From: an uncultured Armatimonadota bacterium
GTDB taxonomy: Bacteria; Armatimonadota; Fimbriimonadia; Fimbriimonadales; Fimbriimonadaceae
Direction: 5' to 3'
Assembly (NCBI GenBank): GCA_903927025.1
Contig: CAIYLG010000018.1
Span: 1 to 55,104 of the forward strand
Length of the DNA stretch: 55,104 nt
Numbering within the stretch: the stretch's first letter is position 1; every line of letters begins with the position of its first letter. The notes beneath the pieces were generated by a model that was not told where the DNA came from, ran no database searches, and saw only the letters and a program-made list of their open reading frames with translations. Shown here one piece after another: positions 40,259 through 44,820 of the stretch. Position numbers and translations under genes: made by a program.

Positions 40259-41170
40259 ATGCGACTCTATGTGGGAGTAACGGATTCAAACTGGTTCAAT
40301 CGCTTGTCTGCTGCCCAACCAGACGAGGTGAACTTCTGGAAGCCGGGCGAAGGCGGTTCTTTCAACGTGCTTCAGACCGGAGAGCTGTTTCTGTTCAAAC
40401 TGCACGCACCCCAGAATTTCATCGTCGGCGGTGGTCATTTCGTCAAATTCTCCAAACTTCCTGCATCACTGGCTTGGCAAGCTTTTGGAGAGAAAAATGG
40501 GGTGGGTTCCTTTTCTGAGTTCCTTTCGAGAATTCGAAAGTATCGAAAGGAAGACCCTGGACACGACCCAACGATCGGCAATATTGTGCTCACTCAGCCG
40601 TTTTGGCTACAAAGAGATGACTGGATTCCAGCGCCAGCAGACTGGCCAAAAAGCACGGTTCAAGGAAAGGGCTACGATGCCCTTGATGGGCGGGGATTCC
40701 AGCTTCTTGCACAGGTTCAGGAGCGAGTTGGAGTCGCGTTTTCGGCCGGAACTATCCAAGAATCGACTCCAAGATACGGCACCGCGGTTGCGCAGTATCG
40801 GCTGGGCCAGGGCGGGTTTAAGGTTCTTGTCACGGACGCCTACCAACGTCGATGTGCCATCACCGGTGAGTCGACACTTCCCGTCCTAGAGGCTGCCCAT
40901 ATCAAGCCTTATTCAACCGAAGGTCCGCACGATCTCAGAAACGGCCTTTTACTCCGTTCTGATATGCATACGCTGTTTGATCGAGGATTCCTGACCGTTA
41001 CACCGGAGCTTAGGCTCGAAGTGAGTTCCCAGATTCGCGAGCAGTACTCAAACGGCAAGGTCTACTACAGCTACCACGGGGCTGAGTTGAAATCACTTCC
41101 AACATTTGATGCTGACAAGCCATCTTCAGAGTTCCTAGACTGGCACAACCAACACGTCTTCGTTCCCTAA
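40259..41170 (+). CDS. HNH endonuclease (HNH_2 type) with N-terminal domain
   Basis: 303 residues. The N-terminal ~130 residues (TDSNWFNRLSAAQPDEVNFWKPGEGGSFNVLQTGELFLFKL) form a domain that resembles PUA/ASCH-like nucleic-acid readers. The C-terminal HNH domain carries QRRCAITGESTLPVLEAAHIKPYSTEGPHDLRNGLLLRSDMHTLFDRGFL, with the metal-binding His and Asn in AAHI and RNG and the following H-TLFD. This is the COG3440 predicted restriction-endonuclease group. No methylase lies beside it. The HicB antitoxin starts 24 bases after it. Confidence 0.88.
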   Translation: MRLYVGVTDSNWFNRLSAAQPDEVNFWKPGEGGSFNVLQTGELFLFKLHAPQNFIVGGGHFVKFSKLPASLAWQAFGEKNGVGSFSEFLSRIRKYRKEDPGHDPTIGNIVLTQPFWLQRDDWIPAPADWPKSTVQGKGYDALDGRGFQLLAQVQERVGVAFSAGTIQESTPRYGTAVAQYRLGQGGFKVLVTDAYQRRCAITGESTLPVLEAAHIKPYSTEGPHDLRNGLLLRSDMHTLFDRGFLTVTPELRLEVSSQIREQYSNGKVYYSYHGAELKSLPTFDADKPSSEFLDWHNQHVFVP

Positions 41171-41181
41171 CAAAGGTCGCC

Positions 41182-41187
41182 TATAAT
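41182..41187 (+). promoter_or_regulatory. -10 box TATAAT for hicB
   Basis: TATAAT ends 7 bases before the TTG start of hicB, so transcription could begin at or next to the start codon. This would make the hicB message leaderless. The -35 region (41159-41164, TTCGTT) is weak. Confidence 0.4.
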
Positions 41188-41193
41188 TTTCTT

Positions 41194-41427
41194 TTGCACG
41201 GCAAGATCACGATCACTTACCAAGAAATTGCCGACGGCTGGATCACAGCATCAATCCCAGAATATCCAGGCGCAATCTCGCAGGGGAAGACTCGCGTTGA
41301 AGCCCGTGAGATGGTTTTGGACGCTCTGAACGAGCTCATGATAGCGGGCAGGGAAGCCGACATTCGCGCACCTGGAACAGCCAATGAGTCGCTTGACTTT
41401 GAAATCACCGTCGCGAAGTCGGCTTAG
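41194..41427 (+). CDS. hicB: HicB-like antitoxin
   Basis: 77 residues from a TTG. ITITYQEIADGWITASIPEYPGAISQGKTRVEAREMVLDALNELMIAGREADI is the HicB/UPF0150 partial RNase-H fold. The C-terminus ESLDFEITVAKSA resembles the usual end of this antitoxin. It should bind and silence a HicA mRNA interferase. A HicA-like frame lies just downstream, but on the opposite strand. There is no Shine-Dalgarno site; translation may be leaderless. Confidence 0.85.
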   Translation: MHGKITITYQEIADGWITASIPEYPGAISQGKTRVEAREMVLDALNELMIAGREADIRAPGTANESLDFEITVAKSA

Positions 41428-41451
41428 GGATTTCCAGCGCTTAGCAGATTC

Positions 41452-41601
41452 CTAAACTGTAAATTCCGCAAGCTCGTTATGTCGAGGAACTGCAGTTCGC
41501 TTTCCGGAGAGGAGTCGCACCCAAATGGTGTGAGCTCCTCCCTCTCGGCGTATTTCACACCCATTCGTTCGAAGGTGTCGCTCAAGATCGCCTCTTTTCA
41601 T
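41452..41601 (-). CDS. hicA: short HicA-like toxin frame, opposite strand
   Basis: 49 residues: MKRGDLERHLRTNGCEIRRE then GGAHTIWVRLLSGKRTAVPRHNELAEFTV. The double-stranded-RNA-binding-like fold of HicA, its G-x-H (here GGAH, the catalytic His) and the VPRH-NEL end are clear. A normal HicA continues for about 12-15 residues (RKIC-x-x-L), but here TAG follows. It may be a truncated remnant or a minimal active form. It is convergent to hicB with 24 bases between stops, which is unusual, because hicA and hicB are normally in tandem. Confidence 0.72.
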   Translation of the reverse strand: MKRGDLERHLRTNGCEIRREGGAHTIWVRLLSGKRTAVPRHNELAEFTV

Positions 41602-42732: not shown

Positions 42733-43719
42733 TCAGCATCCCGAACAAATGCACTCGCAACATCCAAATGAAGCTCCTTCGCAGCACATCTCCGCCTGGC
42801 AACAGCAAATGTCGGCACAGCAATCTGGGCAACAGCTGTCCATGATTCCGGGTCGACGATCTCGTACCACCACAACTCTGCCTGGACGCTGCCGTCGGAA
42901 CAAGAGAGGGGCAAGGTTAGCCTGAAGACGTGAAGAGTAATTCTCCTTTCGCGCTTCTTCGATCGGCAACGCTTCTAAGAGGCTGACCATTTCCTGTTGC
43001 TTCTCGCGAAGCAGCTTTCTCGCCCGCCTCGCGCTGGTCCGAGTAGCTACCAGCGCGTTGAACTCACGTTTCTTTGCGTCTTCCGGCTTGTCCCGAATCG
43101 CATCAGCCAAATAGGCAATCTCGCCAAACCTCGCCCCAAGATTTGCCATCGTCTCGGCCACCTCTGACGGTGCGCCGATGGAAATCGCTCCGTGGCGAAA
43201 TACGAGGCTTGTCGCCCCTGCAGTAGGTGCAGCGAGACGCTCGAGTCGGGGTGATGCTTCGCACTCCCTCACACTCTGAAGTGCCATAAGCGCCTCCAGA
43301 TCCTGGAACGGAAACTTCCAATCGGACAGTGCCTGGCTCGCCTTCTGAAACTCCTGAGAGTAGGCCCCCACCACCAATCGGATCAATTTCGACCCGGAGT
43401 CCGCAACATGATCCAAAAGCTTGAACTGGGCCAACACCACGTTTGCAGCAGCCGCGTACTCAAGCGGGAACGGAACCTGGTCCGACTGCGGAATCGAGAA
43501 GCAGCTCTTGGATACATATGCCGGGGCAAACTGAAGTGGACTCCCTTGAAGATCGGCTAGAACTTCGCCGAGAAACACGGCGTCGTAGTTGAGAAACACC
43601 CTCGCCTTTTGCCCGTACAGGCGGCCAATCGTCTTGCACGTCCCGCAGTAATGCATGCGCCGAAGCTCCCGTTCCTCCGAACCCTTGTGGCACGAACAAG
43701 CCTTCATAATCCCGAACAT
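42733..43719 (-). CDS. DUF5685 protein with very Cys-rich C-terminus
   Basis: 328 residues from the ATG at 43719; a GTG at 43752 is less likely. MFGIMKACSCHKG...MHYCGTCKTIGRLYGQKARVFLNYDAVFLGEVL is the DUF5685 start with the CxxC pair. The last 33 residues hold 14 Cys (CCPDCC, CCC, CC, CCECICSGC), a density like metal-binding or metallothionein-like tails. The middle is helical with VRECEASPRLERLAAP and ARRARKLLREKQQEM. No signal peptide is present, so the protein is cytoplasmic. It may bind several metal ions; the role is unknown. Confidence 0.85.
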   Translation of the reverse strand: MFGIMKACSCHKGSEERELRRMHYCGTCKTIGRLYGQKARVFLNYDAVFLGEVLADLQGSPLQFAPAYVSKSCFSIPQSDQVPFPLEYAAAANVVLAQFKLLDHVADSGSKLIRLVVGAYSQEFQKASQALSDWKFPFQDLEALMALQSVRECEASPRLERLAAPTAGATSLVFRHGAISIGAPSEVAETMANLGARFGEIAYLADAIRDKPEDAKKREFNALVATRTSARRARKLLREKQQEMVSLLEALPIEEARKENYSSRLQANLAPLLFRRQRPGRVVVVRDRRPGIMDSCCPDCCADICCCQAEMCCEGASFGCCECICSGC

Positions 43720-43803
43720 ACTTGGCGCTGACCTCCTCCGAAGCGCTACCAATATAGCCCGAGTCGAGATAGAAGGCCAAGCCCTCCAGGAGTGAGGAGA
43801 GGC

Positions 43804-44820
43804 TTACGGCGTCGGGGACCAGACTACGGCGTCGCTCTCCCCGCTGGAGCCGATGATTCCCTGACCGACGATCTGCTTGCTGGCGTTGATGTCCAGGGCA
43901 GAGGACTGTGTGTAGTTGGAGGGCAACAGCGAATGCAGGTCAATGAAAGCGGTCGGCGAAGGCTTGGTCCAAACCAGCGCGTGTGCGATTCCACCGGTGA
44001 TGCCGTATCCGACGATAAGTCCGCCACGAGTGGACCAGGCGCTGGAAGAATCGTAGCCAGCCGGGTGGATATCAATCGCGGTTGACGCCGTTTTGCCAGT
44101 CCAAGCGATCGCGTGAAGCGCCTTCGTGGAGGGGATCTCTCCCGAACCCACAATCAAACCTCCGTCAATTGCGATGCAAGTTGATGAGTAGAAGGAGGTG
44201 GGATGGATATCAACCGCCGAACCCGCGGTTCTGCTGGGCCAGATCACCGCATGCTGAATGGCAGAACCGGTTAAATTCCCACAGCCCACAATTAGACTGC
44301 CATACAGCGAGTTGGCATACGAGGCAGAAAATCCCGTTGGGTGGATATCAGTAAATGCGGCAGCGGAAGCCGAGCTCCATACCATTGCATGATTGTCCGC
44401 ATCGCCTACAATGGCGCCATTGAAAGACCAATTGGCATAGGATACGGTGTATCCGGCTGGATGAATGCTTACTGCAGACGAAGCAGTGGGGTTGGTCCAA
44501 ATATACGCAAGGTTATCTGCCTCTCCCACGATCAGACTGCCGCTGATCTTGTTGGCAAAGGAGAACGTCCTTCCCGTCGGATTTAAATCCACTACGCCCG
44601 CGCCAGATGAGTTGGCCCAGTACATCGCATGGTTGTTTGCTCCCACGGTAGCGTAACCCACGAGAGAATTCCCAGACGTTCCTTTAAGCTCAGCATTTGT
44701 CGCGGTTATAGAGCCCTGAAACTGATTAGGGCTGCCAGGCGACGTGCCGCCTCCGCCACCCCCGCATCCGGCTAAAGAAGCGAATGGTATCAAGGCAAGG
44801 AGGATGTTGCGGCGCTGCAT
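43804..44820 (-). CDS. lipoprotein with HAF-type repeats
   Basis: 338 residues. MQRRNILLALIPFASLAGCGGGGG is a lipoprotein signal with lipobox LAGC. Six or more repeats follow the pattern HAMVW...AAFTDIHPTGF...SLIVG, ending HALVWTKPSPTAFIDLHSLLP. These are the HAF family of extracellular repeats, thought to form a beta-propeller on the cell surface. No catalytic residues are apparent. Monocistronic. Confidence 0.85.
   Translation of the reverse strand: MQRRNILLALIPFASLAGCGGGGGGTSPGSPNQFQGSITATNAELKGTSGNSLVGYATVGANNHAMYWANSSGAGVVDLNPTGRTFSFANKISGSLIVGEADNLAYIWTNPTASSAVSIHPAGYTVSYANWSFNGAIVGDADNHAMVWSSASAAAFTDIHPTGFSASYANSLYGSLIVGCGNLTGSAIQHAVIWPSRTAGSAVDIHPTSFYSSTCIAIDGGLIVGSGEIPSTKALHAIAWTGKTASTAIDIHPAGYDSSSAWSTRGGLIVGYGITGGIAHALVWTKPSPTAFIDLHSLLPSNYTQSSALDINASKQIVGQGIIGSSGESDAVVWSPTP

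What the first reader, a model, noticed from the sequence alone, without database searches (positions are those of the whole stretch)
41194..41601. Convergent hicB and minimal hicA on opposite strands
HicA and HicB are nearly always in tandem. Here a 49-residue HicA-like frame with the catalytic GGAH lies antisense, 24 bases beyond hicB, and stops about 12-15 residues short of the usual end. Antisense overlap of the two transcripts could add RNA-level control, or the locus may be an inverted remnant.
Basis: partly seen in the sequence, partly recalled or inferred. Interest (0 to 1): 0.5.

Follow-up and report, generated by a model that had tools for sequence, protein, structure and literature searches.

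The report
Tail-to-tail hicB–hicA pair, toxin truncated
A bacterial toxin gene and its antidote gene, normally read one after the other in the same direction, face each other end to end in a group of related bacteria, and in this genome the toxin half has lost its tail while the antidote gene is still whole.

Summary
In detail: a 49-residue HicA frame (41452-41601, -) faces an intact small hicB (41194-41427, +), 24 bases apart, and matches PF07927 above its cut-off. It is not an inversion accident. Among fetched loci, 18 hicA/hicB pairs, all in the window's order, share this tail-to-tail layout; in all 14 with an open toxin frame the stop codons overlap or lie within 4 bases. The order also has ordinary same-strand pairs, and every fetched pair from outside it is same-strand. 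Convergent hicBs and solo relatives form one clade (nine long or odd rows left out). A TATAAT-like box stands 6-12 bases before 14 of 18 convergent hicBs but before 1 of 15 hicAs, suggesting a private, perhaps leaderless, antitoxin promoter. These HicBs show no DNA-binding domain, so antitoxin excess may come from promoter asymmetry, perhaps with antisense interference: inferred, not shown. The window's own copy is decaying: a frame slip and stops removed HicA's second helix. A 2024 survey of 14 HicA contexts names no convergent class (parts read), and TAfinder demands same-strand genes. New variant of a known kind.

The parts
41182..41187 (+). TATAAT, 6 bases before the hicB TTG: putative -10 box of a leaderless hicB promoter
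   Evidence: Boxes of this kind stand before 14 of 18 convergent hicBs but 3 of 34 window genes of 200 aa or more. Against: the consensus scan lists no promoter with both hexamers here.
41194..41427 (+). hicB-like antitoxin gene, 77 aa, small, no DNA-binding domain found, intact frame
   Evidence: (107.5 bits to a profile that includes it).
41428..41451 (.). 24 bases between the two stop codons; holds part of the out-of-frame hicA tail (IC*ALEIPKP in another frame, which runs on antisense to the end of hicB)
41452..41601 (-). hicA-like toxin gene, truncated at 49 aa; keeps the G-G-A-H histidine but lacks most of helix alpha-2

Best explanation
The window holds a decaying copy of a lineage-specific, tail-to-tail HicA/HicB toxin-antitoxin module. 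In relatives with an open toxin frame, hicB and hicA are read towards each other and meet at stop codons that overlap or nearly touch (shown). hicB, the antitoxin, usually has its own TATAAT-like box 6-12 bases before its start codon, so it is probably made from a private, often leaderless mRNA; hicA mostly lacks such a box and more often has a Shine-Dalgarno-like site (sequence statistics shown; expression inferred). HicB has the partial RNase H-like core and no DNA-binding domain was found, so it should neutralise HicA by direct binding and not repress an operator (fold predicted; neutralisation inferred from the family). The antitoxin excess would come from promoter asymmetry, possibly helped by hicB transcription running antisense through hicA, since a terminator was hardly ever seen between them (inferred). 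In this genome the toxin has lost its C-terminal helix and is probably dead, leaving an orphan antitoxin.
For: Layout: of 110 HicA stretches in fetched loci, 82 have same-strand upstream hicB, 19 are convergent (18 pairs, all in the window's order), 2 have a same-strand downstream match and 7 have no hicB found. Ends: all 14 pairs with an open toxin frame lie between 6 bases of overlap and 4 bases apart, 8 of them exact 4-bp overlaps. Selection: the 14 open-frame convergent hicAs (33-72% protein identity) differ mostly at third codon positions, 0.42/0.35/0.64. Clade: 30 convergent and solo hicBs are one side of a branch, SH-aLRT 99 (nine long or odd tandem rows left out). Promoter: box before 14 of 18 convergent hicBs, 1 of 15 convergent hicAs, 8 of 69 tandem hicBs, 3 of 34 window genes; Fisher 8.6e-7 against window genes. 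SD-like 4-mer: hicA 8 of 15 (shuffle mean 2.9), hicB 1 of 18 (shuffle mean 4.3). Fold: HicB E-E-E-H with no extra domain; an intact HicA alpha-beta-beta-beta-alpha, helix 2 at 46-56, first Foldseek matches 1whz and the HicA chains 6hpb_A and 6g26. The two profiles hit the two partners of one solved complex, 6hpb A and B. Decay: the window's tail reads on in another frame with a second stop.
Against: No RNA or toxicity data. The promoter pattern was noticed first and counted afterwards. The window's TATAAT has no -35 partner in the consensus scan, and only 6 of 12 solo hicBs have the box. hicA promoters were not found. The HicA tree does not itself recover one convergent clade: 6 label changes, 5 without seven long or odd rows; the one-clade tree is not rejected, AU p 0.42. 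With all rows in, two long tandem rows fall inside the HicB clade. Foldseek E-values are weak (best 4e-3 for HicA, 2e-2 for HicB). Other phyla were sampled through capped lists: 30 HicA loci each and 10 HicB loci.
Confidence: 0.72

Rival explanations
1. The orientation is neutral. The pair is an ordinary HicAB system that acts by protein-protein neutralisation only, and the facing layout arose once and was inherited without any regulatory role.
For: A single origin fits the HicB tree. Facing neighbours with 4-bp stop overlaps are common in compact genomes (recalled, no call). No expression data.
Against: Near-constant abutment in 14 of 14 open-frame pairs whose HicAs share only 33-72% identity. 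The antitoxin-side promoter box and the missing DNA-binding domain suggest that dosage control is arranged differently from the model operons.
Confidence: 0.35
2. Inversion accident: hicA of a tandem operon was flipped locally in this genome and then decayed.
For: Same-strand order is the rule in the other loci fetched and in PMC10865869. The window's hicA is broken.
Against: The same facing layout in 17 other pairs of the order. The window's HicB lies in the clade of convergent and solo HicBs.
Confidence: 0.03
3. The 49-residue HicA is a kept short form, not a remnant: its N-terminal part still binds RNA or HicB.
For: The tail lesions seen lie past codon 49, while the first 49 codons match the family at 83 bits (the profile includes the window row) with a coding-type mismatch pattern.
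Against: Helix 2 (residues 46-56) completes the fold; the Fig. 4 legend of PMC10865869 says HicB packs against HicA helix 2 in modelled Class 5 and 6 complexes. No other fetched locus carries this short form; the other three broken copies break elsewhere.
Confidence: 0.1
4. hicB is now an independent orphan antitoxin kept for immunity against HicA toxins of mobile elements; the facing hicA is irrelevant.
For: hicB is open in all four pairs where hicA is broken, and 12 solo hicBs of the same clade were at hand, two of them with weak facing hicA remnants (8.5 and 16.4 bits).
Against: Does not explain the 14 pairs with an open hicA.
Confidence: 0.3

Closest known systems
HicAB Class 2 (hicBA, small HicB without DNA-binding domain) of Gerdes 2024, PMC10865869
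   Same: HicA of about 60-65 aa with dsRBD-like fold; HicB of about 70-77 aa without DNA-binding domain; genes abut.
   Different: Class 2 is a bicistronic operon; here the genes face each other, so no one transcript can encode both proteins.
E. coli HicAB (PDB 6hpb)
   Same: The two protein profiles hit the two partners of this complex.
   Different: E. coli HicB carries a C-terminal HTH domain and represses its own promoter (PMC11594946, passages read); the operon is hicA then hicB.
Convergent type I systems (SprG/SprF; par of pAD1)
   Same: Toxin and antitoxin transcripts converge; SprF overlaps the 3' end of sprG (PMC4885055, passages read).
   Different: There the antitoxin is an RNA; here it is a protein, and an antisense role is only inferred.

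Membership tests
HicA toxin (PF07927) | Profile match above the gathering score | tested here: met
   30.8 bits vs 27; 20 of 20 aligned window and relative rows match at E<=0.01.
HicA toxin (PF07927) | Complete alpha-beta-beta-beta-alpha domain with catalytic histidine | tested here: not met
   Histidine present (column 24 invariant in 14 rows), but the window protein ends at residue 49 and lacks most of helix 2 (46-56 in the G021 model). The G021 relative meets it.
HicA toxin (PF07927) | Growth arrest by RNase activity | not testable with these tools
   No assay.
HicB antitoxin | HicB profile / partial RNase H-like fold | tested here: met
   Window protein alone sub-threshold in Pfam; family profile hits HicB 6hpb_B at 1.9e-4; Foldseek best hit HicB 6g1c, probability 1.00 but E 0.018.
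HicAB type II module, Classes 1-8 (Gerdes) | Bicistronic hicAB or hicBA operon | tested here: not met
   Opposite strands in the window and in 17 other pairs.
HicAB type II module | Adjacent HicA and HicB genes as a conserved pair | tested here: met
   18 convergent pairs.
HicAB type II module | HicB neutralises HicA by direct binding | not testable with these tools
   No complex prediction or assay was made.
Type I toxin-antitoxin system | Antitoxin is an antisense RNA | not tested
   No expression data; a role of the hicB mRNA as antisense is inference only.

The most novel reading that the evidence does not exclude
A hybrid toxin-antitoxin design: the antitoxin acts twice from one gene, as a protein that binds HicA and as a transcript that runs antisense through hicA and silences it, replacing the operator autorepression that these HicBs seem unable to perform. 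The whole subfamily is invisible to finders that require same-strand gene pairs, and facing protein TA pairs of other families may be overlooked too.
Probability: 0.3. Interest if true: 0.72.

Novelty: new variant of a known kind. Interest (0 to 1): 0.52.

Why it matters
Protein toxin-antitoxin pairs are described and searched for as same-strand operons: TAfinder in TADB 3.0 requires same-strand genes for types II to VII (PMC10767807, passages read), and the 14-context HicA survey describes operons and fusions in the Results parts read (PMC10865869). A conserved facing pair suggests that the operon is dispensable, that antitoxin excess can be set by separate promoters, and that other such pairs may have been missed. 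It also offers a natural test of how TA dosage is controlled without a DNA-binding antitoxin.

Tried and rejected
Chance ORF: rejected. Local inversion: rejected. Fixed synteny: among 24 loci compared within their stored flanks (about 1.5 kb each side), matching frames were hicA or hicB frames, and the ten other frames whose position I looked up all overlap hicB on the other strand; the window's two neighbours match no other fetched locus. So the pairs seem to sit in different places. Viral and plasmid carriage: HicB profile in viral contigs, no relative; one HicA protein there, none; one HicB protein in plasmids, none, another in phages, none; one HicA protein in plasmids, 1 record with same-strand upstream hicB, and in phages 3 unannotated records without a convergent hicB. 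Terminators: my scan of 17 of the 18 pairs (G043 left out) found one candidate on the hicB strand and one on the hicA strand; the tool's laxer scan of the window shows one inside hicB, at chance level. First codon-position count used ungapped rows, one of them (G173) out of register; one search repeats it on an alignment with all 14 open-frame rows and replaces it.

Dropped before counts: HicA rows under 50 bits or without hicB were left out of the trees (93 rows kept of 110 stretches); 7 tandem rows for the AU test; 9 for the final HicB tree; 3 of 18 convergent hicAs had no ATG/GTG/TTG near the expected start and are missing from start-site counts. Of 13 solo hicB regions fetched one, L100 of G032, was not used. 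G165 is counted as open-frame although its usual start position reads CTG. My notebook says 11 of 20 junctions with a 4-bp overlap; one search gives 10 of 20. The organism was not identified.

Full report
OBSERVATION. The window carries hicB at 41194-41427 (+) and a 49-residue HicA-like frame at 41452-41601 (-), with 24 bases between their stops. The HicA frame matches PF07927 at 30.8 bits (cut-off 27) and is the only such match at E<=1e-3 in the 5.25 Mb genome. HicB is below the Pfam cut-off on its own, but of 17 aligned window, relative and solo proteins 16 match UPF0150 and 14 HicB_lk_antitox at E<=0.01, and their profile hits solved HicBs. The 49-mer alone finds no PDB chain, and neither protein has an NCBIfam or PADLOC hit.

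THE TOXIN IS TRUNCATED. The other HicAs aligned have 60-65 aa. Past the window's stop, another frame reads IC*ALEIPKP, like the family tail with a slipped frame and a further stop. In the predicted structure of an intact relative (G021; mean pLDDT 92) helix 2 spans residues 46-56; the window protein stops at 49. It is therefore probably inactive. A published survey notes that HicB packs against HicA helix 2 in modelled Class 5 and 6 complexes (PMC10865869).

THE FACING LAYOUT IS CONSERVED. Searches of 101 genomes (100 relatives and the window's own) found hicA in 13 and hicB in 33. Profiles over 291 genomes of the phylum found hicA in 75 (E<=1e-3) and hicB in 104 (E<=1e-6). Mapping both in the fetched loci gave 18 convergent pairs, all in the window's order (families f1, f3, f5). 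Of these, 13 have a full hicA, 1 (G165) an open hicA frame without a usual start codon, and 4 a broken hicA (window G000; G171; G032 contig 226; G043); hicB is open in all 18. Junctions were read in 20 places (18 pairs plus two remnants): 10 have an exact 4-base overlap of the two stop codons, one a 6-base overlap, the other nine lie 0 to 24 bases apart. The 14 pairs with an open hicA all lie between 6 bases of overlap and 4 bases apart. Their HicAs share 33-72% identity and differ mostly at third codon positions (0.42/0.35/0.64). Of 12 hicBs used as solo (13 regions fetched), two show weak facing hicA remnants (G173 contig 4, 8.5 bits; G013, 16.4 bits).

THE ORDER ALSO HAS SAME-STRAND PAIRS, and outside it only same-strand pairs were seen. 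G032 carries three same-strand pairs beside a convergent one, and several low-scoring loci of the order are same-strand (L046, L048-L050, L052, L054). In the tables, 16 further contigs hold both genes close together without my having fetched the hicA locus; all 16 are same-strand (15 hicB first, 1 hicA first). The HicA profile hit 91 of 396 genomes of the phylum around an Acidobacteria MAG and 29 of 296 around a Spirochaete MAG (E<=1e-9); 30 loci each were fetched of the places listed. The genome-contig scan with the window HicA gave 4 loci. Over all fetched loci, 110 HicA stretches divide into 82 with same-strand upstream hicB, 19 convergent (18 pairs; one broken gene counted twice), 2 with weak same-strand downstream matches and 7 with no hicB found. 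The HicB profile in 257 and 247 genomes of those two phyla gave 10 loci at E<=1e-14; in 9 a hicA sits downstream on the same strand, in 1 none was found, none is convergent.

ONE HICB CLADE. With nine long or odd tandem rows left out, the 30 convergent and solo hicBs are one side of a branch with SH-aLRT 99. With all rows in, two long tandem rows fall inside. The HicA tree is poorly resolved (6 changes of label; 5 without seven rows); one clade is not rejected (AU p 0.42). A single origin of the layout is therefore likely but rests mainly on HicB.

SEPARATE, UNEQUAL EXPRESSION SIGNALS. A [TC]A[TC]A[AC]T box 4-12 bases before one of up to four candidate starts occurs in 14 of 18 convergent hicBs (6-12 bases), 6 of 12 solo hicBs, 1 of 15 convergent hicAs, 8 of 69 tandem hicBs, 1 of 68 tandem hicAs and 3 of 34 window genes of 200 aa or more; hicB against window genes Fisher p 8.6e-7. 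The TANNNT test gave 11 of 18 for hicB (shuffle mean 1.7, 0 of 500 as high) and 3 of 15 for hicA (shuffle mean 0.8, 24 of 500 as high). A box so close to the start suggests leaderless mRNA. SD-like 4-mers stand before 8 of 15 hicAs (shuffle mean 2.9, 1 of 500 as high) and 1 of 18 hicBs (shuffle mean 4.3). In the window the box is TATAAT at 41182-41187; a consensus scan lists no two-hexamer promoter there, which counts against a classical strong promoter. The hicB pattern was noticed while reading upstream sequences and then counted, so the test is post hoc. My scan for terminator-like sites in 17 of 18 pairs found one on the hicB strand and one on the hicA strand.

MECHANISM. Shown: layout, abutment, clade, sequence signals. 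Predicted: folds. Inferred: HicB binds HicA (family knowledge); HicB does not repress an operator, because it has only the E-E-E-H core and Pfam finds no DNA-binding domain; antitoxin excess is set by the private hicB promoter, possibly with antisense transcription through hicA. For the window itself: an orphan antitoxin beside a dying toxin gene.

LITERATURE. PMC10865869 (abstract, outline and parts 1-2 of 3 of Results read; main text searched for six words) lists 14 HicA contexts, Classes 1-10 as bicistronic operons; 'convergent', 'opposite' and 'divergent' do not occur in it. PMC11594946 (passages) describes hicAB and hicBA operons and says that HicBs lacking a DNA-binding domain are common. 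PMC2701414 (passages) calls HicAB a two-gene operon. TADB 3.0, PMC10767807 (passages), requires same-strand genes for types II-VII. The convergent TA systems met in passages are type I (PMC4885055; PMC6843646); the match in PMC5703827 concerns plasmid RNAs. Searches for a facing HicAB or type II pair: 17 papers, listing seen only; none; 24 papers, listing only; 4 papers, passages of 3 opened; 1 paper, passages opened. None that I saw reports one; unopened papers and subscription papers could.

VERDICT. The 'inverted remnant' reading is wrong for the layout and right for the fate of this toxin copy. The wider finding is a conserved facing type II pair found, so far, in one bacterial order.

Noticed in passing
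40259-41170 (+): HNH endonuclease-like protein ending 23 bases before hicB; its C-terminal part resembles phosphorothioate-DNA restriction enzymes (NF045808, 75.2 bits, below the cut-off of 180; PADLOC HNH 71.4 bits). Not found in the other fetched loci.
   Followed up: partly
42733-43752 (-): DUF5685 protein (107 bits) that ends in a strikingly cysteine-rich tail (CCPDCCADICCCQAEMCCEGASFGCCECICSGC).
   Followed up: no
L005, L015, L017, L018 (genome G032): One genome carries three same-strand hicB-hicA pairs and one convergent pair, with HicBs in different parts of the tree; two of the four toxins are split by frameshifts.
   Followed up: partly
L061 788-979 (genome G165): Convergent hicA with an open frame but CTG at the expected start: either a rare start codon or an early step of toxin loss.
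   Followed up: partly
43804-44820 (-): Lipoprotein-like protein with repeated IHP(A/T)G-type motifs and no Pfam match.
   Followed up: no
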